34,874 bases of DNA from Crocosphaera sp. (GTDB lineage: Bacteria > Cyanobacteriota > Cyanobacteriia > Cyanobacteriales > Microcystaceae), in NCBI RefSeq assembly GCF_030064895.1, contig NZ_JASJEB010000030.1, forward strand, positions 1 to 34,874, written 5' to 3'. The notes under the pieces were generated by a model that saw only the letters and a program-made list of their open reading frames with translations, was not told the DNA's origin and did no database searches. The translations under genes and the position numbers were made by a program. Positions 23,009 to 32,242 of this stretch are shown here, one piece after another. Position 1 is the first letter of the stretch. Every line of letters starts with the position of its first letter.

Positions 23009-23115
23009 AATATCATAAAATTTTGCTGAGACAAACTTTATAATTTTCTCAGGCAATTCTCAGATAGTCTTATTAACTTTATCAAAAGATTATCGACTAA
23101 ATTTTGAATTCCGCC

Positions 23116-24021
23116 ATGATCAACTTATTCAAGAATACCAACCCATTGTTAATGGGTTTAACGTTTGCTTCTATTTTCAGCAGCGCATCAGCAGTCCAAG
23201 CATTAACCCTGAAAGTTGAAATAGAAAACCTTGGTCCAAATGGTGGTGTTGCACTCACTCCTGTTTGGGTGGGATTTCATGATGGTAGCTTTGATAGTTA
23301 CAATACTGGACTCCCTTCTGAGCGAGGGTTAGAGCAAATTGCTGAAGACGGTATACCTACCACCATATCCGAAGATTTCCTCAATAATTTAACCTATGTT
23401 CAAGGTGGTGCAAGTGGAATTTTTTCAAGCTCTCAAGTGGGAACTCGTGTTGATGGTGGTGTTGGTGACGGTCCTATTACCGCAGGAACTACAGTCACTA
23501 CGGAATTTCAAATAACTCCAGATGATTCTAATCGTTACTTCTCCTATGCATCGATGGTTCTCCCTTCCAATGATTATTTTATTGCTAATGGTAATCCCTT
23601 TGCTCATAATTTAACCAGTTTATTTACGGGAGAAGACTCCTCAATTTCATTTTTGATCGGACAAGCAAACACCATTAACGATGCTGGAACGGAAGTCAAT
23701 GATTTTGCTACTTCTGCTGGTAATGGTTTATTCCAACCTGGATTACCTGACGGACAACCAGAACCAGGCATAGGTGAGCCTCAAAATGGCCTTAACGTCA
23801 ATGTTGCTAATCCTTATGCTAATTTCCTCAATACACCGGCAGATTTTGACACGAATTTTGCCAGTCTCAATTTTAATAATACTGATCTTTATCCTAATGG
23901 TATTGCCCGTGTGACCATTACAACAGTAGCTGTTCCTGAATCATCCACCACTGTCGGTTTAATTGCGATCGCAGGATTATTCTTGGGTGCTGGTTTACGT
24001 CGTCGTCATCATTCTAAATAA
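23116..24021 (+). CDS. Spondin-domain protein with PEP-CTERM sorting signal
   Basis: A 301-residue exported protein. The signal peptide occupies residues 1-29 (LLMGLTFASIFSSASAVQA). A spondin_N-type domain follows (IENLGPNGGVALTPVWVGFH, then DGSFDSYNTG, LEQIAEDG). The C-terminus is a PEP-CTERM anchor: VPESSTTVGLIAIAGLFLGA followed by GLRRRHHSK. Such proteins are processed by an exosortase-like enzyme and sent to the envelope or extracellular matrix. The exosortase gene is not in this window. The frame is open from a TTG at 23104, but the ATG at 23116 gives a normal signal peptide. A strong hairpin follows the stop. The ligand is unknown; spondin domains often serve in adhesion. Confidence 0.85.
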   Translation: MINLFKNTNPLLMGLTFASIFSSASAVQALTLKVEIENLGPNGGVALTPVWVGFHDGSFDSYNTGLPSERGLEQIAEDGIPTTISEDFLNNLTYVQGGASGIFSSSQVGTRVDGGVGDGPITAGTTVTTEFQITPDDSNRYFSYASMVLPSNDYFIANGNPFAHNLTSLFTGEDSSISFLIGQANTINDAGTEVNDFATSAGNGLFQPGLPDGQPEPGIGEPQNGLNVNVANPYANFLNTPADFDTNFASLNFNNTDLYPNGIARVTITTVAVPESSTTVGLIAIAGLFLGAGLRRRHHSK

Positions 24022-24306: not shown

Positions 24307-27294
24307 ATGAAAGCAATATTAAGTAGTCTCATAACCTTGGGTATTTGTCTAACTCCTATTAACCCTATATTGATCCTTCAACCCGCAACAGCACAAACTG
24401 AAAATTTACTACAACAAATACAGCAAATACAACAACAAATACAGCAAATACAACAACTAAGACGACAAGCGATACAGCAAGCAAGACAGGGAAAACCTTT
24501 TGAGTCTATAGAAACCTTTAAACAATTACTTACTATTGCACAACAACAGCAAGATAGGGAGTTAGAAGCGTTTTCTTTGTCAGGTTTAGGGTTTAACTAT
24601 AGTAATATTGGGCAACCTCAGCAAGCTTTAAAAAAATATGAGCAAGCATTGTTAATCTTTCGGGAAATTGAAAATCGCTTGGGAGAAGTTGCCACTCTCA
24701 GTAGGATTGGTCTAGTTTATTATCGTATCGGCCAACTCAAGGAATCATTAGACTACTATCAACAAGCATTACCTATCACCAGGGAAGTTGGCGATCGCTT
24801 AGGAGAAGTGAATAATCTTAATGTTATTGGAGACATTTACTACAACATCGGCCAACCCAAGGAAGCATTAGGCTACTATCAACAAGCTTTACCTATCATC
24901 AGGGAAATAGGTGATCGCTCTAGAGAAGCGATCATTCTCAATAATATTGGCTTCGTTTACAGCAACATCGGCCAACCGACAGTGGCATTAGACTACTATC
25001 AACAAGCTTTACCCATCAGGAGGCAAGTGGGCGATCGCTCTGGTGAAGCTGACACTCTCAATAATATTGGCTTCGTTTACAGCAACATCGGCCAACCCAA
25101 GGAAGCATTAGACTACTATCAACAAGCATTACCTATCATGAAGGAAGTAGGCCATCGCTCTGGTGAAGCTGTTACTCTCAATAATATTGGTTTAGTTTAC
25201 CGCAGTATCGGCCAACCCAACAAAGCATTAGACTACTATCAACAAGCATTACCTATCATGAAGGAAGTTGGCAATCGCTCTGGTGAAGCTGTTACTCTCA
25301 ATAATATTGGTTTAGTTTACCGCAGTATCGGCCAACCCAACAAAGCATTAGACTACTATCAACAAGCATTACCTATTATCAGGGAAGTTGGCGATCGTTC
25401 TAAGGAAGCAAAAACTCTCAGTAATATTGGCGTAGTTTACAACACTATCGGCCAACTAGAAGAAGCCCTAAAATATTTTCAACAAGCATTACCTATGATC
25501 AGGGAAGTTGGCGATCGCTCTGGGGAAGTTCCTATTCTAAATAATCTTGGTTTCGTTTACGACAACATCGGCCAACCCACGGTGGCATTAGACTACTATC
25601 AACAAGTATTACCTATCACCAGGGAAGTGGGCGATCGCTCTGGGGAAGCTAGAACTCTCAATAATATTGGCTTAGTTTACCACCGCATAGGGCAACCCAT
25701 GGTGGCATTAGACTACTATGAACAAGGGTTACTCATCATGAGAGAAGTGGGCGATCGCTTGAGTGAAGCTGGTACTCTCAGTAATATTGGGGGAGTTTAC
25801 CGAGATACAGATCGCCCCGTCGAAGCTCTTAAATATCTAGAAGATGCTGTTAATATTACCTTAGAAATGCGTCAGGGTTTAAAAAGGGAAGATAGAAAGG
25901 CATTTTTAAAACAAAAACAAGAACAAGGAACTGCTATTGCACTGATTGAACTTTTAATCGAACAAAATCAACCTGAAAAAGCTTTTGAATGGTCTAACCT
26001 TTTCACAACTTATGATTTAGCAGACTATAATCGTTTAATTAATGCACAAGTAGCTGACCCTGAAATACAAAAAGAGATTAATGACTGGAATCAAAAAAAT
26101 GAACAATTAAACTTTCTTAGACAACAATTAGATAAAGAACATTCTCCAGAAAAAGCACAACAAGTTAATGAACTGCAAGCAGAATTAAATCTACAAGCAG
26201 AAGCTATTGCTGATCAATATCCCGAAGTAGCAGAATTATTTGAAATTAAACCCACAGATATTGCTACTTTAAGGGAAAATATTGCTCTAGATACTGCTAT
26301 TATTCAACCTGTCATCTTATCGGATAAAATTGCGCTGTTTATTCTCACTTCTGAAGAATTAAAAGTAATTACACAAGATATTGATAGTGAGGAATTTAAT
26401 CAATTAATTACCCAGTATCGTCAGGAACTATCAGATTATAAAAATGCCAATGTATTTGTTACTGGCGAACAGATTTATGATATTTTAATTCGTCCCGTAG
26501 AATCTGAAATTAAAACCATTGCTCCTAAAAATTTAGCGATTATTGCTACAGGAAAACTGCGTTATATTCCCTTTGAAACTTTATCTGATCCAGAAACAGG
26601 AGAATTTTTATTAGAAAAATATCCTATTCATTATTTAACTCGTATTAGTACCAGCGCGATACCTACTGACACTTCTTTACAAAAGGGGGAAAAGAATATG
26701 AAAGCGTTGGTTTTAGCTAATCCTAAACCAACTCAAGAAACCCTACCAGGAACTGAAAAAGAAGCTCAACATCTTATGGATAATTTCCCAGGAAGTGAAG
26801 CTTATTTAGGAACAGATGCTACCTTACAAACTTTTGAGGAAAATGCTTCACGTTTCTCTATTTTACACTTAGGAACTCATGGCTGTTTTGACCCTGATGG
26901 TTGTCCAGATTTAGGGATGGAAGCTAATACTATTTTATTTGCTAATAACGAACAATATCACATCGCTGACGCTGATTTATTAGGGTTAAAAAATACAGAA
27001 ATCTTAGCCTTAAGTGCTTGTCAAACTGCCAAAGAAGCTAACGCTAACGGACGAGAATTATCGGGTTTAGCTTTTGTTTTAGAAAGAGCAGGAGCAAAAA
27101 CAGTTCTGGCTAGTTTATGGAATGCAGATGATAATATTAGTGCTAATATTATGAAGGATTTTTATACAAATATTAAGGAAGAAGGAATGAGTAAAAGTGA
27201 AGCAATGAGACAAGCAAAAATAAGTCATATTCAAACAGGAGAAAAAATTCATCCTTTTTTTTGGTCACCTTTTATTTTAATTGGCAACAATTAG
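24307..27294 (+). CDS. TPR-CHAT protein (caspase-like peptidase), exported
   Basis: A 995-residue protein with a signal peptide (residues 1-30, ending ATAQ) and a Gln-rich linker (LLQQIQQIQQQIQQIQQ, 34-50). From residue 93 there are eleven 40-residue tetratricopeptide repeats of the type GLVYRSIGQPNKALDYYQQA, then a helical linker (about 530-650). The C-terminal CHAT domain has the caspase-like dyad visible as H858 in LHLGTHGCFD and C905 in LALSACQTAKEA, so it should be an active cysteine peptidase. Such proteins are abundant in filamentous and unicellular cyanobacteria; targets are mostly unknown. The signal peptide argues for action outside the cytoplasm. The start is preceded by ACTGATAACTG with no Shine-Dalgarno sequence. 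It is monocistronic. Confidence 0.88.
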   Translation: MKAILSSLITLGICLTPINPILILQPATAQTENLLQQIQQIQQQIQQIQQLRRQAIQQARQGKPFESIETFKQLLTIAQQQQDRELEAFSLSGLGFNYSNIGQPQQALKKYEQALLIFREIENRLGEVATLSRIGLVYYRIGQLKESLDYYQQALPITREVGDRLGEVNNLNVIGDIYYNIGQPKEALGYYQQALPIIREIGDRSREAIILNNIGFVYSNIGQPTVALDYYQQALPIRRQVGDRSGEADTLNNIGFVYSNIGQPKEALDYYQQALPIMKEVGHRSGEAVTLNNIGLVYRSIGQPNKALDYYQQALPIMKEVGNRSGEAVTLNNIGLVYRSIGQPNKALDYYQQALPIIREVGDRSKEAKTLSNIGVVYNTIGQLEEALKYFQQALPMIREVGDRSGEVPILNNLGFVYDNIGQPTVALDYYQQVLPITREVGDRSGEARTLNNIGLVYHRIGQPMVALDYYEQGLLIMREVGDRLSEAGTLSNIGGVYRDTDRPVEALKYLEDAVNITLEMRQGLKREDRKAFLKQKQEQGTAIALIELLIEQNQPEKAFEWSNLFTTYDLADYNRLINAQVADPEIQKEINDWNQKNEQLNFLRQQLDKEHSPEKAQQVNELQAELNLQAEAIADQYPEVAELFEIKPTDIATLRENIALDTAIIQPVILSDKIALFILTSEELKVITQDIDSEEFNQLITQYRQELSDYKNANVFVTGEQIYDILIRPVESEIKTIAPKNLAIIATGKLRYIPFETLSDPETGEFLLEKYPIHYLTRISTSAIPTDTSLQKGEKNMKALVLANPKPTQETLPGTEKEAQHLMDNFPGSEAYLGTDATLQTFEENASRFSILHLGTHGCFDPDGCPDLGMEANTILFANNEQYHIADADLLGLKNTEILALSACQTAKEANANGRELSGLAFVLERAGAKTVLASLWNADDNISANIMKDFYTNIKEEGMSKSEAMRQAKISHIQTGEKIHPFFWSPFILIGNN
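24583..25902 (+). repeat. 120-bp tandem repeats coding the TPR array
   Basis: Eleven units of exactly 120 bp. Units at 25138-25257 and 25258-25377 differ at only 3 of 120 positions, showing very recent duplication or conversion. Several units encode VGDRS with the HIP1 octamer GCGATCGC at the same place. Confidence 0.93.
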
Positions 27295-27323: not shown

Positions 27324-28208
27324 TTACTTAGGAATAGATGGAGCTAAAATCATTACTTGTCCTTGATTATAAGTTTTTATAGCTAAAACTGCAGGAACTT
27401 GTTTTTTATCAGCATTTTTATCCAACCCGAAAAAACAATAAATTATATCATTATTTTCTAGTAATAATCGCCAGATTCTCGGTTCTTTTAAAGTGGGATC
27501 ATTATCTTCAAATCCTCGAATATATTCAAATAAACTTAAGTCTCCAATAAAACGAGAATTCTTTAAACTAGGATTAGTAAAAATATCATCTAAATCTCTT
27601 CCTAATACTAATTTATCTTTCGGAAAAATGTAGGTAAATACAGGTAAAGTAGAAGTTTCATTAATTGCATCTCGACGTGCATCATCCCATCCTTGACTTC
27701 TTGCTAACCAAAATAAAACAATTAATAACCAAATAACAATAATTAAATCTTTTCTCAGGGAAACAGGAATAAGAGTTGCTGATTCTCGCACAAACTTAGA
27801 TACTGAACATTGATGAAAAGTTTTAGCATACTTTCTCAAAAAATATTTTACTGTTTGCCATTTTCTACGACGAGATACACCATTTAAAGGTTCGGATAAA
27901 GGTAAAATAAAAGCAACCGTTAGGGGTTCCACAAACCAAAGCGTTATTTTAATAGTAGTTGCAACTAAAAATAATGCTAGAATAGTTTTAGTAAATGCCG
28001 AGCCATTACCTACAAAAACTTGAATAGGAACAAAAAAGAAGGATCGAAAGGGAAATGATAATTGTGTTAATTCTAATTGAAAATAACCAAAATAAGCCCA
28101 ACGATAGATCCATCCTGTAAAATAAAGAAAAATTGCTAGCAACCCCAAAATACTAGCCAAGGTTCCTACAATCTCTGTATTATCTTGTGAAGGTTGATTA
28201 TTGAACAT
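27324..28208 (-). CDS. Membrane protein of unknown function
   Basis: A 294-residue protein with hydrophobic segments at about 14-38, 72-96 and 152-171, a basic cytoplasmic loop (NGVSRRRKWQTVKYFLRKY), and a C-terminal domain of roughly 120 residues beginning near LARSQGWDDARRDAIN. The latter ends in a beta-rich stretch (VPAVLAIKTYNQGQVMILAP). I do not recognise a family. It converges on the TPR-CHAT gene with a 29-bp gap and diverges from gene A with 47 bp between start codons, so the two divergent genes probably share a control region. The ATG at 28208 has no strong ribosome-binding site. Confidence 0.72.
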   Translation of the reverse strand: MFNNQPSQDNTEIVGTLASILGLLAIFLYFTGWIYRWAYFGYFQLELTQLSFPFRSFFFVPIQVFVGNGSAFTKTILALFLVATTIKITLWFVEPLTVAFILPLSEPLNGVSRRRKWQTVKYFLRKYAKTFHQCSVSKFVRESATLIPVSLRKDLIIVIWLLIVLFWLARSQGWDDARRDAINETSTLPVFTYIFPKDKLVLGRDLDDIFTNPSLKNSRFIGDLSLFEYIRGFEDNDPTLKEPRIWRLLLENNDIIYCFFGLDKNADKKQVPAVLAIKTYNQGQVMILAPSIPK

Positions 28209-28255: not shown

Positions 28256-28831
28256 ATGATAAAACTTACCACTAAAATCATTACCATTGCTTCTTTGACT
28301 GTTGGATTAGGATTTTATTTGATACAAAAACATAGTTTTTCTTTACCCTCTCCTGAAATAAAATCCACTAAAGTGCAAAATAATACTATACCTGTAGCAT
28401 TACCCTATGATGCCACAGTAAAATTAAAAACAGGTAGCACAATGTCAGGAAAAATTATAGGGTTTGAGCAACAACAGTCAATGATTACTCTACAAAGAAG
28501 TAGACAATCTAAAAAAATATCCATGGCTGATATTAACAAAGTAGAATTTGGAGGAGAAGTTAAATTTATCCATAGTGGAGAAGTTATAATAAGAGGAGAA
28601 GATGATGATTTTGACCCCAACACAAGACAAATTTGGCAAGAACCCTTAAACCATTTTAAAATAACTAATGCTCAAGATGGAAAAGCTGAAGTAATTTTAT
28701 CTAATCTGAGTAAAGGTAAATTAAGAGGAGTTGTTGCTGTTTCTCAAACCAATACTTATGTTGTGGATGAACTCAGTTTTGATAATAATAATAATCAGAT
28801 AAATTTAAACGTCATTCCTTATTCAGAATAA
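28256..28831 (+). CDS. Small exported/anchored protein ('gene A'), unknown function
   Basis: A 191-residue protein starting MIKLTTKIITIASL; an in-frame TTG 11 codons upstream is less likely. One N-terminal hydrophobic segment (5-22) is a signal or anchor. Residues ~55-105 look like a small Sm/SH3-type beta barrel (VKLKTGSTMSGKIIGFEQQQ, then INKVEFGGEV). A second beta-rich part ends NVIPYSE. No family is assigned. The original arrangement appears to be gene A then aroE, 11 bp apart. Here the following aroE is only a fragment, while pieces of a second gene A copy lie upstream of the real aroE. Confidence 0.7.
   Translation: MIKLTTKIITIASLTVGLGFYLIQKHSFSLPSPEIKSTKVQNNTIPVALPYDATVKLKTGSTMSGKIIGFEQQQSMITLQRSRQSKKISMADINKVEFGGEVKFIHSGEVIIRGEDDDFDPNTRQIWQEPLNHFKITNAQDGKAEVILSNLSKGKLRGVVAVSQTNTYVVDELSFDNNNNQINLNVIPYSE
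28641..28700 (+). repeat. Gene A segment duplicated at 29752-29811
   Basis: About 52 of 60 bases match 29752-29811. Both encode nearly the same peptide (HFKITNAQDGKAEVILS versus HFKIINAQDGQAEVILS), so the second is a real relic of gene A coding sequence. Confidence 0.88.
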
Positions 28832-28925
28832 TCTCAAACATAATGTCAATTATTACCGGAAAAACGAAACTATTAGGAATCATTGGTGATCCCGTCGAAC
28901 ATTCTTTATCCCCTGTCATGCAAAA
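28811..28925 (+). repeat. 115-bp duplication, left copy (end of gene A and start of aroE)
   Basis: Matches 30041-30155 at 113 of 115 positions (differences at 28888 and 28917). It covers the last seven codons of gene A, the spacer, and the first 27 codons or so of aroE. Confidence 0.96.
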
Positions 28926-28995
28926 AGAAGAGCCTAAACCTCAAGATAAAAACACTGATCAAGACTACGTAATCAATCCAGTTCATGATATTTAA
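28843..28995 (+). pseudogene. aroE: Truncated aroE copy
   Basis: The first 27 codons are aroE (MSIITGKTKLLGIIGDPVEH, then SLSPVMQ), with one change from the intact gene, His16 to Asp. The frame then runs into unrelated sequence coding KEEPKPQDKNTDQDYVINPV and HDI before a TAA at 28993. All substrate- and cofactor-binding parts beyond the first strand are missing, so it cannot be a shikimate dehydrogenase. A 50-residue peptide could still be made. Its stop overlaps the convergent stop of the coiled-coil gene. Confidence 0.9.
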
Positions 28996-29360
28996 GATGG
29001 GTTTTGTAATTGTTCTAATCTTGTTTCAAGATTTCTAAATCGTTGTTCAATATCGAGATGTTCTGATTCATTAGTAATGCTATAACCGATTAATTGTTCA
29101 ATGCGTCTCTCATTACGGTTAGACCTTGCAATAAATTGGTTTATCTCCTCAATCATTATCTGCAATGTCTCTCTTTCCCGTTCTTGGGAATCTTTTAATT
29201 GTTCTTGAGCCTCTTTCAACTGTTCTTGAGCATCTTGAAATTGAAGTTGTCTTTCTCTAAATTCAAATTGACTTTCTTGCAGTTGAATCTGTCTCTCTTG
29301 CAGTTGTCTTTGAACTGCTAACATCCCTTCAATGGTTTTCTGGATTTCTTCAAAAGTCAT
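28992..29360 (-). CDS. Coiled-coil protein of unknown function
   Basis: A 122-residue soluble protein. Residues ~12-75 are an almost uninterrupted charged, Gln/Glu-rich coiled coil (VQRQLQERQIQLQESQFEFR and following heptads). A second helical segment (about 95-120; IEQRFRNLETRLEQLQNPS) probably forms another coil, with IGYSITNESEHLD between. There is no catalytic motif. It follows the XRE regulator gene after 36 bp on the same strand and should be co-transcribed with it. The two genes sit inside the duplicated gene A-aroE locus. It may be a partner of the regulator (antitoxin-like or scaffold); function not recognised. Confidence 0.72.
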   Translation of the reverse strand: MTFEEIQKTIEGMLAVQRQLQERQIQLQESQFEFRERQLQFQDAQEQLKEAQEQLKDSQERERETLQIMIEEINQFIARSNRNERRIEQLIGYSITNESEHLDIEQRFRNLETRLEQLQNPS

Positions 29361-29396
29361 GATATTTTAGCGATTAATGTTTCTTTGACCGGGTAG

Positions 29397-29636
29397 TTAG
29401 TCATCAAAACTAACTCCTAAATTAATATTGAGAGCCTTTTCTACTTTTCTAACAAGGTTCTCTGTCACTGGCGATCGCAGATCCTCGTTTTCTAATTGAT
29501 ACCAATAGGATCGACTGATGTTACTTTGTCGACAGATTTCACTTAATGACCGTTTGTCATTTTCCCTTGCCTGTTTGATTTTTTTCCCTAGATCGGGAAA
29601 GTCTCGAACTGTTTCTGTAATTCGCTTAACTTGCAC
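29397..29636 (-). CDS. XRE-family helix-turn-helix regulator
   Basis: A 79-residue protein, nearly all of it a single HTH_3 (Cro/CI-type) domain: LGKKIKQARENDKRSLSEIC, the recognition helix region NISRSYWYQLENEDL, and VRKVEKALNI. It would bind DNA as a dimer. The start is a GTG at 29636, as no ATG is available in frame. The promoter upstream is overlaid by a 12-bp inverted repeat, so autorepression is likely. It is the first gene of a two-gene unit with the coiled-coil protein. Its small size resembles antitoxin or phage-type regulators, but no toxin family is recognised next to it. Confidence 0.83.
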   Translation of the reverse strand: MQVKRITETVRDFPDLGKKIKQARENDKRSLSEICRQSNISRSYWYQLENEDLRSPVTENLVRKVEKALNINLGVSFDD

Positions 29637-29676
29637 TATTGTTGTACTCGTTTATTTACCTCAACTCTATAATTTT

Positions 29677-29705
29677 ATTGTACATTGTCCACAGACGGTT
29701 GACAA
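29677..29705 (-). promoter_or_regulatory. Promoter of the XRE/coiled-coil unit
   Basis: On the minus strand TTGTCA (29700-29705) and TACAAT (29677-29682) are separated by exactly 17 bp, a near-ideal sigma-70 type arrangement. It lies 41 bp before the GTG start. Confidence 0.65.
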
Positions 29706-29726
29706 GTGTTTGCAGACAACGTACAA
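29678..29726. promoter_or_regulatory. Inverted-repeat operator over the XRE promoter
   Basis: TTGTACATTGTC (29678-29689) and GACAACGTACAA (29715-29726) form an inverted repeat with 11 of 12 positions complementary. TTGAC/GACAA-type half-sites also occur between them. The left arm covers the -10 box, and the -35 box lies between the arms, as expected for an autorepressor. Confidence 0.65.
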
Positions 29727-29751
29727 CTAAAAACAGAGAAAACTTACTAAT

Positions 29752-30061
29752 AATCCTTAAAGCACTTTAAAATAATTAATGCTCAAGATGGCCAAGCAGA
29801 AGTCATTTTATCAGCCTTCGGCTGGGAGGCAGAGGGCAGAAGGCAGAAGGCAGGAGGTTGTTCTTTCTTAGAAGATATCTCTGCACTATAGCAGCGAACC
29901 AGCCCTTGGGTTTAAAACCCCACCGTCTGCACGGTGTCTACAATTTGTTGGGGTTGAATCCCCATCAAATTGATCCTCCTGCCCCCTGCCCCCTGCCTCC
30001 TGCCTTTCAACTAACTTCTGACTTCTGACTTCATTGAACTGTCATTCCTTATTCAGAATAA
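29752..30061 (+). pseudogene. Remnant of a second gene A copy, interrupted
   Basis: 29752-29811 matches the middle of gene A, and 30041-30061 matches its last seven codons. The ~110 bp that should join them is replaced by 229 bp of repeat-rich, hairpin-rich DNA. The upstream part of gene A is missing. This relic lies exactly where gene A would be relative to the intact aroE. Confidence 0.8.
29813..30030. repeat. MITE-like structured element with heptamer arms
   Basis: The left arm has four GGCAGAR-type heptamers (29828-29857). The right arm has the complementary CCTGCCY-type heptamers (29975-30004); the two can pair over 30 bp with a few mismatches. Between them are separate hairpins: CTGC/GCAG (29881-29894), GGGTTTAAAACCC (29908-29920), ACCGT-CTGC-ACGGT (29922-29935), and CAATTTG-T-TGGGG/CCCCA-T-CAAATTG (29941-29972). 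An AGCC-TTC-GGCT hairpin marks the left edge and a TTCTGAC heptamer array the right. No protein is encoded. Confidence 0.65.
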
Positions 30062-30155
30062 TCTCAAACATAATGTCAATTATTACCGGAAAAACGAAAC
30101 TATTAGGAATCATTGGTCATCCCGTCGAACATTCTTTATCCCCTGTGATGCAAAA
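30041..30155 (+). repeat. 115-bp duplication, right copy (end of gene A and start of aroE)
   Basis: Partner of 28811-28925, 113 of 115 bases identical. This copy runs into the complete aroE. Confidence 0.96.
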
Positions 30156-30939
30156 TGCAGCCATAGAACATTTAGGGGTAGATTATATTTATGTTCCTTT
30201 CCCAGTCAAACCCGAAAACTTAGCAACTGCTTTGCATGGTTTTGCAACCATCGGTGTGATGGGATTTAATGCAACCATTCCCCATAAACAAGCTATCATC
30301 CCTCTCTTATCAGAGATTACCACAAATGCCCAATTAGTGGGAGCAGTTAACACAGTTTGGCGCACAGAAACAGGGTGGAAAGGGACAAATACCGATGTAA
30401 TTGGCTTTTTAGCCCCCCTGAAACCCCTTAAACGCCCCTGGAACACCATTAAACCTATTATCCTGGGAAATGGAGGCGCAGCGAGAGCCGTGGTGGTGGG
30501 ATTAGCGGAATTGGGCTGCCCCGAAATTGCGGTTGTGGGACGTGATCGCGACAAGTTAGAGCAATTTAAGCAAAGTTGGCATAATAGCGACCTTAAAGCC
30601 TCTGTAACCGTCCATTCCTGGGATGAATTATCGGGGTTGGTATCAGAAAGCCAGTTAATTGTGAATACTACACCCATCGGTATGTTTCCCCATACAAATA
30701 ATTCTCCTGTTGACAGTCATATTTGGGAAAAATTTCCTGAAAATGCCATCGCCTACGACTTAATTTATAATCCTAGTCCCACTAAATTTCTCAAAGATGC
30801 GCAACCACAGGGATTAAAGATTATTGATGGTTTAGATATGTTAGTCTATCAAGGAGCAGCGGCCTTAGAAATTTGGGTGCAAAAACCTGCACCTGGAGAG
30901 GTTATGAGTCAAGCTTTGAAACAATATCTTTTTAATTAA
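30073..30939 (+). CDS. aroE: Shikimate dehydrogenase AroE
   Basis: A 288-residue NADP enzyme of the shikimate pathway (3-dehydroshikimate to shikimate). The substrate site is visible as GHPVEHSLSP (residues 15-24), NATIPHK with catalytic K72, and NTDVIGF with D108. The nucleotide-binding fold has LGNGGAARAVVVGLAELG, and the C-terminus has DGLDMLVYQGAAALEIW. The ATG at 30073 is preferred over an upstream TTG frame because the same ATG begins the duplicated fragment. Length is normal. The native upstream neighbour (gene A) is reduced to relics, so the promoter may now come from the inserted repeat-rich DNA. Confidence 0.95.
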   Translation: MSIITGKTKLLGIIGHPVEHSLSPVMQNAAIEHLGVDYIYVPFPVKPENLATALHGFATIGVMGFNATIPHKQAIIPLLSEITTNAQLVGAVNTVWRTETGWKGTNTDVIGFLAPLKPLKRPWNTIKPIILGNGGAARAVVVGLAELGCPEIAVVGRDRDKLEQFKQSWHNSDLKASVTVHSWDELSGLVSESQLIVNTTPIGMFPHTNNSPVDSHIWEKFPENAIAYDLIYNPSPTKFLKDAQPQGLKIIDGLDMLVYQGAAALEIWVQKPAPGEVMSQALKQYLFN

Positions 30940-30955: not shown

Positions 30956-30982
30956 AACTGATAACTGATAACTGATAACTGA
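30956..30982. repeat. Heptamer repeat AACTGAT directly before a start codon
   Basis: Three full AACTGAT units and six bases of a fourth, ending one base before the ATG at 30984. It occupies the ribosome-binding-site position of the Uma2 gene. Confidence 0.9.
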
Positions 30983-30983
30983 A

Positions 30984-31568
30984 ATGACCCTGACAAAAAC
31001 CCGTTTAACCCTTCAAGAATACCTCAACTATGATGAAACAGATACAACTTATGAACTGGTAAATGGAGAATTAATTGCCATGAGTTTGGGAATGGGAAAA
31101 CATGGTGAAATTGCTGATTTTCTCAACTATTGTTTTCGTCAAGAAATTAAGCATCTTAGTAAACCTTGGGTATCAAAACATAAGTTGATTGGTATTCAAT
31201 CACCCCGTGGATCTCGATGGGACACGGTTCGCATTCCTGATGTGGTGGTTTTATCAACTTCTCAATGGCAACAACTACAAAACCGTGAAGCGGTTATTCT
31301 ACTCGATGAACCCTCACCTATTTTAGTAGTAGAAGTGGTTAGCGAATCAACTAAAAATATTGATTATCGTGCCAAACGTTCTGAATATAGTGTACTCGAT
31401 ATTCCTGAATATTGGATTGTTGATCCCCTTGAAGAAAAAGTGACTATTCTATCTTTATCCGAGGGATTTTATGATGAGACTATCTTTACTTCTTCAGATA
31501 TGGTGAAATCTCCTACTTTTACTGAATTTAATTATACTGTATCTCAAATTTTAGAGGGGGATATTTAA
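30984..31568 (+). CDS. Uma2 family (DUF820) putative endonuclease
   Basis: A 194-residue protein with the Uma2 restriction-endonuclease-like fold: LTLQEYLNYDETDTTYELVN at the start, then the PD-(D/E)XK-type residues in RIPDVVVLS (Asp) and ILVVEVVSESTKNIDYRAKR (Glu, Lys), and IPEYWIVDPLEEKV. These genes are greatly expanded in cyanobacteria, often near mobile DNA; nuclease activity is predicted from the fold and the biological role is unclear. The start lacks a Shine-Dalgarno sequence and follows the AACTGAT array. It is unrelated in close sequence to the second Uma2 gene 130 bp downstream on the other strand. Confidence 0.85.
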   Translation: MTLTKTRLTLQEYLNYDETDTTYELVNGELIAMSLGMGKHGEIADFLNYCFRQEIKHLSKPWVSKHKLIGIQSPRGSRWDTVRIPDVVVLSTSQWQQLQNREAVILLDEPSPILVVEVVSESTKNIDYRAKRSEYSVLDIPEYWIVDPLEEKVTILSLSEGFYDETIFTSSDMVKSPTFTEFNYTVSQILEGDI

Positions 31569-31586
31569 TTATCCTTACTTATATAT

Positions 31587-31700
31587 TTAAACATTTTTGA
31601 AGTAAATAACATCACTATTATCTAATGTATTCTGGCATTGAATTCCTAAGCGATCTTTTAGTTTTGATTCAAGTTCAGTATTAAGGTTTAAGGTAATCAT
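31587..31700 (-). CDS. Small ORF coupled to Uma2 gene by ATGA overlap
   Basis: A 37-codon frame (MITLNLNTELESKLKDRLGI, then QCQNTLDNSDVIYFKNV). Its ATG overlaps the TGA stop of the upstream Uma2 gene, the classic arrangement for coupled translation. The opening resembles the beginning of small ribbon-helix-helix antitoxin-like proteins, but the rest does not continue that family, so it may be a truncated relic. It is too short for domain assignment. Confidence 0.4.
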   Translation of the reverse strand: MITLNLNTELESKLKDRLGIQCQNTLDNSDVIYFKNV

Positions 31701-32242
31701 GTTATTTTCCTTGTTTGAGTCATCTCCATAAGCTGATTAACAGTTATATTTTCTATGTCATCCAAGGTAGGTAAACTATCTTCTTTTGTGTAGATTAGAG
31801 GTAATTCTGTTCCTTGCCAAACCCATACTTGTTCCCGTTGTAGATCGATTAACCAGGCCAGTTTAGTATCATTACTAAGACAATGAAGAATTTTGCTTTG
31901 TAAACTCAGAGTACCTTGATCCGGAGAACGAATTTCGATCATCCAATCTGGTGAACCTTGCAAGGGACAATCTTCAGTTGGTAAGCGTGTATTTTTAACA
32001 ACAGCAATATCAGGAACAGGAGAAAAAGGTGGAACTATGCAACGAAATTCCTGAATCGCTTCATAATCGTTGGTTTGTTGATTAATTTTGTTAACTAAAT
32101 TACGCTGTAATCTAGAATGAAAAAGGGTTGGCATGGGTTTTTGTTGCGCCTGTCCATCGATAAATTCCCATGCAGGAGATGTTTCAATATTGGGTTGGGT
32201 GAGAAATGTCTCTAATAGGGAAGATATAAGAGGCGATCGCAT
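31697..32242 (-). CDS. Uma2 family (DUF820) putative endonuclease
   Basis: A 181-residue member of the Uma2 family, with FIDGQAQQKPMPTLFHSRLQ near residues 27-46, SPVPDIAVVKNT (Asp) and PDWMIEIRSPDQGTLSLQSK (Glu, Lys). LAWLIDLQREQVWVW follows, a typical Uma2 ending. The start codon lies in a HIP1 octamer (32233-32240). Its stop overlaps the start of a 37-codon ORF. The upstream ATPase gene on the same strand is 82 bp away with a hairpin between, so they are probably separate transcripts. Predicted nuclease, role unknown. Confidence 0.82.
   Translation of the reverse strand: MRSPLISSLLETFLTQPNIETSPAWEFIDGQAQQKPMPTLFHSRLQRNLVNKINQQTNDYEAIQEFRCIVPPFSPVPDIAVVKNTRLPTEDCPLQGSPDWMIEIRSPDQGTLSLQSKILHCLSNDTKLAWLIDLQREQVWVWQGTELPLIYTKEDSLPTLDDIENITVNQLMEMTQTRKIT

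What the first reader, a model, noticed from the sequence alone, without database searches (positions are those of the whole stretch)
28256..30939. Reciprocally decayed tandem duplication of gene A-aroE
The junction 'end of gene A + start of aroE' occurs twice (28811-28925 and 30041-30155, 113/115 identical). A middle segment of gene A also occurs twice (28641-28700 and 29752-29811, about 52/60). The left unit keeps gene A and has only 27 codons of aroE; the right unit keeps aroE and has only scraps of gene A. This looks like a duplicated operon that lost opposite halves, separating two formerly adjacent genes and trapping a foreign cassette between them. The very different identities of the two segments (98% versus 87%) suggest either later gene conversion over the aroE start or two events.
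Basis: partly seen in the sequence, partly recalled or inferred. Interest (0 to 1): 0.72.

Follow-up and report, generated by a model that had tools for sequence, protein, structure and literature searches.

The report
Insertion bracketed by duplicated gene junction
In one Crocosphaera-like cyanobacterium about 1.1 kb of extra DNA sits between two genes that are direct neighbours in two relatives, and a short copy of their junction lies on both sides of it; this looks like an ordinary recombination scar, clearly readable but not a new kind of system.

Summary
The gene A/aroE junction occurs twice (2 of 115 bases differ) and a gene A segment twice (8 of 61 differ). The key prediction holds: two named Crocosphaera genomes carry gene B<-, gene A->, 11 bp, aroE->, Uma2-> without insert. 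The window adds about 1.1 kb (28926-30040): a 66-bp tail of unknown source, a small gene, a plasmid-type HTH gene with its upstream region, a gene A fragment and a ~200-bp dispersed repeat.

"Duplicated operon with reciprocal decay" is only partly supported. Nothing found shows that more than about 290 bp was duplicated. One single-crossover (Campbell-like) or homology-facilitated illegitimate integration gives this anatomy directly. E. coli experiments gave flank duplications of 109-950 bp, explained by single crossover (PMC3240628, passages). The gene A fragment is about as diverged as another species' gene (dS 0.62, 16 codons), the aroE start much less (dS 0.05, 27 codons). So the fragment may be older than the junction copy, or the junction was homogenised; both stretches are short, and 2/115 is not significantly below the 7/115 to a related species (p = 0.17). 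Assembly artefact is unlikely but untested.

The parts
27324..28208 (-). gene B, conserved divergent partner of gene A, unknown function
   Evidence: ORF; no Pfam or NCBIfam hit at E 0.001; found in 8 of 8 relatives' loci where gene A was re-found by tblastn
28256..28831 (+). gene A, open frame of 191 aa, function unknown
   Evidence: no Pfam hit; one NCBIfam hit far below its cut-off (20.4 v 200 bits)
28641..28701 (+). gene A segment repeated at 29752-29812
   Evidence: 53/61 identical
28811..28925 (+). left copy of the gene A end / 11 bp / aroE start junction
   Evidence: 113/115 identical to 30041-30155
28843..28995 (+). truncated aroE: 27 native codons plus 23 unrelated codons and a stop
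28926..28991 (+). tail at the left insert joint, origin unknown
   Evidence: window:28926-28999 matched only itself: no match in the 22 other genomes searched
28992..29360 (-). small gene, coiled-coil-like by eye (not predicted by a tool)
   Evidence: DNA relatives of it in seven other genomes of the family (G002, G003, G004, G006, G009, G010, G026; the last weak, E 6e-4), at other places; no Pfam hit; no match in the plasmid collection
29397..29636 (-). HTH (XRE-like) regulator of a family found on cyanobacterial plasmids
   Evidence: Pfam HTH_3 23.2 bits v cut-off 23; 32 plasmid records
29678..29726 (.). operator-like inverted repeat TTGTACATTGTC / GACAACGTACAA upstream of the HTH gene
   Evidence: the region aligns with upstream regions of four HTH homologues and DNA likeness to two Nostoc plasmids runs into it, to 29718 and 29725
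29729..29812 (+). gene A fragment (right copy); two stops in its upstream part
   Evidence: 77% to L043 over 84 bp, 78% to L042 over 73 bp; 53/61 to the intact gene A in its core; stops
29813..30033 (.). ~200-bp dispersed repeat with inverted ends (29827-29857 / 29975-30005) plus short heptamer-like repeats
   Evidence: near full-length relative in G003:C6, 88% over 202 bp
30041..30155 (+). right copy of the junction
30073..30939 (+). aroE, complete shikimate dehydrogenase, 288 aa
30984..31568 (+). Uma2-family gene that follows aroE here and, by DNA alignment, in L042 and L043

Best explanation
This is a recombination scar. A piece of DNA carrying a small gene, a plasmid-type HTH gene, a fragment of a diverged gene A, a dispersed repeat and a gene A/aroE junction integrated into an ordinary gene A-aroE locus. 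One end joined by homology in the junction (115-290 bp) and the other end was non-homologous. This is what a single crossover with a circularised fragment (Campbell-like) gives, or a homology-facilitated illegitimate event whose illegitimate joint falls at aroE codon 27-28. Such an event yields at once an intact gene A followed by a stub of aroE, the foreign DNA, a stub of gene A, and the intact aroE. Both genes stay open; only their adjacency is lost. Shown: anatomy, insert-free locus in relatives, boundaries, divergences. Inferred: the integration route, the donor, and that the junction copies are alike through conversion or a close donor.
For: Two Crocosphaera relatives carry the uninterrupted locus, and their single junction aligns with both window copies (named records). 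The duplicated part is the part shared by the two flanks and no more was found. The insert holds an HTH gene of a family with 32 plasmid records; DNA likeness to two Nostoc plasmids covers 29404-29718 and 29404-29725 (69% and 66%), and the upstream region aligns with those of three Nostoc plasmids and G058; it ends where the gene A fragment begins. In E. coli, 56 of 60 Lac- clones gave the PCR product of a partial duplication of the homologous locus; the 14 sequenced had 109-950 bp (PMC3240628, passages). The gene A fragment differs from the local gene A about as another species' gene would (dS 0.62, dN 0.05 over 16 codons; whole gene A between species dS 0.38-0.45), which suggests a non-local origin.
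Against: A simple one-step integration predicts that the two segments differ about equally, but they differ by 8/61 and 2/115 (8/60 v 2/115, p = 0.003), so a conversion step or a mosaic donor must be added; fast decay of the fragment could also widen the gap. No donor was found: four plasmid records match parts of the insert, none more than 29% of it, and no phage record matches. The tail has no match, so the left joint cannot be interpreted. The segments are very short (16 and 27 codons). The small gene and the HTH gene are not a known pair: they were found apart.
Confidence: 0.5

Rival explanations
1. Tandem duplication of the whole gene A-aroE segment, then loss of the 3' part of the first aroE and the 5' part of the second gene A, with foreign DNA caught between; the junction was later homogenised by gene conversion.
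For: Same end structure; adjacency in two relatives holds; gene A decay beside aroE happens in this genus: G007 keeps only about 54 bp of gene A end and spacer before aroE.
Against: No remnant of the lost halves was found. It needs a duplication, at least two deletions, an insertion and a conversion. If the truncated aroE and the gene A fragment had drifted neutrally since one event, they should differ about equally; they do not.
Confidence: 0.22
2. Loss and regain: this lineage's own gene A decayed (right fragment plus repeat), and an intact gene A with the first 27 codons of aroE was later re-acquired from a close strain upstream of it.
For: The right gene A fragment is the more diverged one while the junction copies are alike. 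Gene A was not detected in five of eight genus relatives.
Against: The CHAT gene, gene B and gene A lie in the same order as in L042 and are about as diverged from L042 (87% and 85%) as aroE-Uma2 is (88%). Against L043 the left part is lower (80.5% v 85.0%), which may reflect faster genes. Neither marks the left unit clearly as newly arrived.
Confidence: 0.13
3. Assembly artefact: two strain haplotypes wrongly concatenated at the junction.
For: The genome is a 188-contig draft; three of five named relatives are metagenome assemblies; the longest exact run shared by the junction copies is 77 bp. No reads were available.
Against: A misjoin at the shared junction alone would not create the aroE-tail adjacency at 28925/28926. 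Gene A and full-length aroE each gave one place in the genome. Completeness 98 and contamination 1.01. The window holds no N.
Confidence: 0.1
4. A dedicated mobile element (transposition or site-specific integration) inserted the cassette, the duplication being its target duplication.
For: Plasmid-type HTH gene and upstream region in the insert; a repeat with inverted ends lies within it.
Against: No transposase or recombinase domain among the insert's ORFs of 50 aa or more, which were scanned with Pfam. A 115-290 bp target duplication is far longer than the few to some tens of bp that I recall for transposons. The repeat lies between the two right-hand gene A pieces, not at the cassette ends.
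Confidence: 0.05

Closest known systems
Single-crossover integration after end loss in E. coli conjugation (PMC3240628, passages read)
   Same: Insert flanked by a partial duplication of the homologous locus, 109-950 bp in 14 sequenced clones.
   Different: Laboratory plasmid; no diverged gene fragment; here the donor is unknown and the two duplicated segments differ in identity.
Homology-facilitated illegitimate recombination in natural transformation (Streptococcus, Acinetobacter, Pseudomonas stutzeri; as described in passages of PMC3240628)
   Same: One homologous and one non-homologous end, about 1 kb of foreign DNA.
   Different: The product described there is insertion plus a deletion of similar size; here there is duplication and no deletion of native genes.
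Vibrio cholerae type VI effector-immunity arrays with displaced genes (PMC5361080, passages read)
   Same: Incoming DNA anchored by homology is proposed to shift native sequence downstream, leaving partial genes.
   Different: There it is repeated and tied to competition; here one event without sign of selection.
Short tandemly repeated repetitive (STRR) repeats of cyanobacteria (search listing only; likeness recalled)
   Same: Heptamer-like runs at about 30006-30034 and 30957-30984.
   Different: The ~200-bp unit with inverted ends is a larger dispersed repeat; its family was not identified.

Membership tests
Campbell-like / single-crossover integration scar | Inserted DNA bracketed by direct repeats of the recipient locus | tested here: met
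Campbell-like / single-crossover integration scar | Uninterrupted single-copy locus in relatives | tested here: met
   L042 and L043
Campbell-like / single-crossover integration scar | Repeat copies equally diverged along their length | tested here: not met
   8/60 v 2/115, Fisher p = 0.003; dS 0.62 v 0.05; short segments. A later conversion tract would mask this, so this is offered as a likely mechanism, not as proven membership
Campbell-like / single-crossover integration scar | A donor molecule with the cassette and the homologous stretch | tested here: inconclusive
   Insert against plasmids: 4 records, at most 29% covered; against phages: none; large metagenomes not searched
Whole-operon tandem duplication with reciprocal loss | Traces of both genes beyond the shared ~290 bp in each unit | tested here: not met
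Whole-operon tandem duplication with reciprocal loss | Adjacency of gene A and aroE in insert-free relatives | tested here: met
   11 bp apart in L042 and L043
Transposon or integrative element | Encodes a transposase or recombinase | tested here: not met
   ORFs of the insert, Pfam
Homology-facilitated illegitimate recombination | Microhomology at the illegitimate joint | not testable with these tools
   The tail's source sequence is unknown

The most novel reading that the evidence does not exclude
The locus is a natural record of repeated gene A turnover: gene A beside aroE is lost again and again in Crocosphaera while the last tens of bases before aroE are kept (G007 and the window's right unit), and here an intact copy was restored next to a decayed one, with the junction serving as the recombination anchor because it holds aroE's translation start or promoter.
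Probability: 0.12. Interest if true: 0.4.

Novelty: new member of a known kind. Interest (0 to 1): 0.25.

Why it matters
It is a clear example of how a short foreign stretch can separate two neighbouring genes without breaking either, with the insert-free state preserved in two relatives. It warns against reading a duplicated junction as a whole-operon duplication, and shows gene A as a gene that is often missing in this genus. It has little consequence beyond genome evolution.

Tried and rejected
A genome-contig scan with gene A found no confirmed locus; the scan with aroE gave five named records. The tail's DNA and peptide gave no source (22 other genomes; only loci fetched so far). The small gene's protein had no plasmid match. 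Rfam at gathering scores found nothing in the window. Small gene and HTH as a conserved pair was rejected: among the relatives' loci tested, each was found without the other (flanks about 1.5 kb). Gene A-aroE as a widely kept operon was rejected: aroE lay in 2 of the 8 relatives' loci where gene A was re-found (three further weak gene A loci, L018-L020, gave no gene A hit at E 1e-4 and were left out of that count).

Literature: four searches (12 of 49, 4 of 4, 6 of 6 and 2 of 2 rows seen). No listed title or abstract start concerns this locus; that is not proof that nothing is in print. Passages of two papers were read. The alignment had L073 in the wrong orientation and was not used; its reverse complement was read.

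Results that weaken my reading: restricting the gene A comparison to 50 bp gives 6/50 v 2/115, p = 0.010, instead of 13/70, p = 0.00008; synonymous sites alone give about 4/10 v 1/19, p = 0.036 (rounded counts); the junction copies (2/115) are not significantly closer to each other than the junction is to L042 (7/115), p = 0.17. No structure prediction was made.

Full report
Observation. The junction copies 28811-28925 and 30041-30155 differ at 2 of 115 bases. The gene A segments 28641-28701 and 29752-29812 differ at 8 of 61. A mechanical repeat search lists both, and the fragment matches gene A with E = 2.7e-14 in a search of the whole genome. The left unit holds an open gene A and 27 codons of aroE, followed by 23 unrelated codons and a stop. 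The right unit holds the complete aroE.

Insert-free state. The genome is 5.5 Mb in 188 contigs; the window is one whole contig. Gene A was sought in 59 genomes, the own one included, and found in 10. Of eight genus relatives, two (G002, G003) carry a close gene A (68% and 60% identity), one (G004) a distant one (31%), and five none. In G002 and G003 aroE starts 11 bp after gene A ends, and a gene that aligns with the window's Uma2 gene follows. Their DNA aligns with the window from gene B to Uma2 with only the insert missing, and their single junction aligns to both window copies. The same contigs, by length and matches, are the named records Crocosphaera sp. MO_167.B6 and MO_188.B44, both metagenome assemblies (features). 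In G001, G005, G006 and G007 aroE was found without gene A in front. G004 gave no aroE hit, and G008 only the 3' third at a contig end. G007 keeps about 54 bp of the gene A end and spacer in front of aroE, a separate loss of gene A.

What gene A goes with. In the 8 relatives' loci where gene A was re-found by tblastn (L010-L017), gene B is present in divergent orientation in 8 and aroE in 2. Flanks were about 1.5 kb. The gene A-aroE neighbourhood is therefore seen only within Crocosphaera here, and calling it an operon is unproven.

What lies between. Window:28926-28999 matched nothing in 22 other genomes. The small minus-strand gene 28992-29360 (coiled-coil-like by eye) has DNA relatives at other places in seven of the 49 other family genomes searched: G002, G003, G004, G006, G009, G010 and, weakly, G026; its protein has no match in the plasmid collection. 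The HTH gene belongs to a family with matches in 32 plasmid records, of which 16 Nostoc and 5 Calothrix, and in 9 of 59 genomes searched, the own genome included. DNA likeness to Nostoc plasmids pNsp_b and pTCL26-01_G spans the HTH gene and its upstream region, 29404-29718 (69%) and 29404-29725 (66%). The upstream region holds an inverted repeat (29678-29689 / 29715-29726) and aligns with those of three Nostoc plasmid homologues and of G058, including an invariant TACAAT. Against reading the inverted repeat itself as conserved: with 12-base arms and at most one mismatch, it was found only in the window; L088 has a different repeat nearby, L058, L086 and L087 have none, three more distant homologues have unrelated ones, and 13 of 500 base shuffles of the window stretch gave an arm match as good. 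The pattern count used a pattern read from the window, so it is no independent test. The gene A fragment begins at about 29729, just after the plasmid-like stretch. No plasmid record covers more than 29% of the insert, and no phage record matches it. The two remaining insert ORFs of 50 aa or more have no Pfam hit.

The repeat. The ~200 bp after the fragment are a dispersed repeat. One near full-length relative is in G003:C6 (88% over 202 bp). Its ends and the heptamer-like stretch gave 46 further matches listed in the own genome, some of them the same place on both strands, from a search that scored 40 of 153 candidates. The fragment-repeat joint falls at ATTTTATC, which also precedes the G003 copy, so a microhomology joint is possible.

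Dating. Over 16 codons the fragment and the intact gene A differ by 4 synonymous and 2 non-synonymous changes (dS 0.62, dN 0.05). Over the same codons the intact gene A differs from L042 and L043 with dS 0.24 and 0.11, and the fragment from them with 0.62 and 0.41; whole gene A between species gives 0.38-0.45. The two aroE starts give dS 0.05 over 27 codons; right aroE start against L042 gives 0.18. The gap between the segments is significant in plain counts (8/60 v 2/115, p = 0.003; 6/50, p = 0.010; 13/70 including the eroded upstream part, p = 0.00008), but the junction is a slow stretch: its copies differ by 2/115 and it differs from L042 by 7/115, which is no significant gap (p = 0.17). 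Since the truncated aroE should have drifted freely since it was made, the simplest reading is that the gene A fragment is older than the junction copy, or that the junction was homogenised later. The mostly synonymous changes in the core suggest it diverged as a working gene; the two stops upstream show later decay.

Mechanism. The duplicated stretch need not exceed about 290 bp, and nothing beyond it was found twice. Integration of a fragment with one homologous end gives this in one step. In E. coli, 56 of 60 Lac- clones gave the PCR product of a partial duplication of the homologous locus, 109-950 bp in the 14 sequenced, explained there by single crossover with a circular molecule that had lost part of the homologous fragment (PMC3240628, passages). 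A related idea is proposed for displaced genes in Vibrio type VI loci (PMC5361080, passages). Against a one-step event stands the unequal divergence, which needs conversion, a mosaic donor or fast decay. Whole-operon duplication with reciprocal loss remains possible but needs more steps. Misassembly is unlikely because a misjoin at the shared junction would not by itself make the aroE-tail joint, but no reads were available.

Verdict. A real, well-defined insertion scar with the insert-free state found in two relatives; ordinary genome evolution, interest 0.25.

Noticed in passing
29404-29726: HTH gene plus upstream region resemble Nostoc plasmid DNA (66-69%), with an operator-like inverted repeat at 29678-29726.
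   Followed up: partly
24307-27294: 995-aa TPR-CHAT protein with nine copies of a 120-bp-spaced DNA repeat; L042 carries a relative next to gene B too, with one extra small ORF between them.
   Followed up: no
L044:4506-6787: In G007 the ArsA-like gene (Pfam ArsA_ATPase for the window's copy) lies directly upstream of aroE in the same direction, unlike the window, where it is downstream and convergent: a local rearrangement.
   Followed up: no
L049 (G005:C44): G005 has a second, 68% identical aroE on another contig; G005 is listed with contamination 3.
   Followed up: no
L083:1458-3022: The relative of the small insert gene in G010 sits beside a DUF433 protein and a HepT-like / nucleotidyltransferase pair, which I recall as a toxin-antitoxin type.
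   Followed up: partly
30984-31568 and 31697-32242: Two Uma2-family genes face each other downstream of aroE.
   Followed up: no
23104-24021: Protein whose C-terminus looks PEP-CTERM-like by recall; no Pfam hit at E 0.001.
   Followed up: partly
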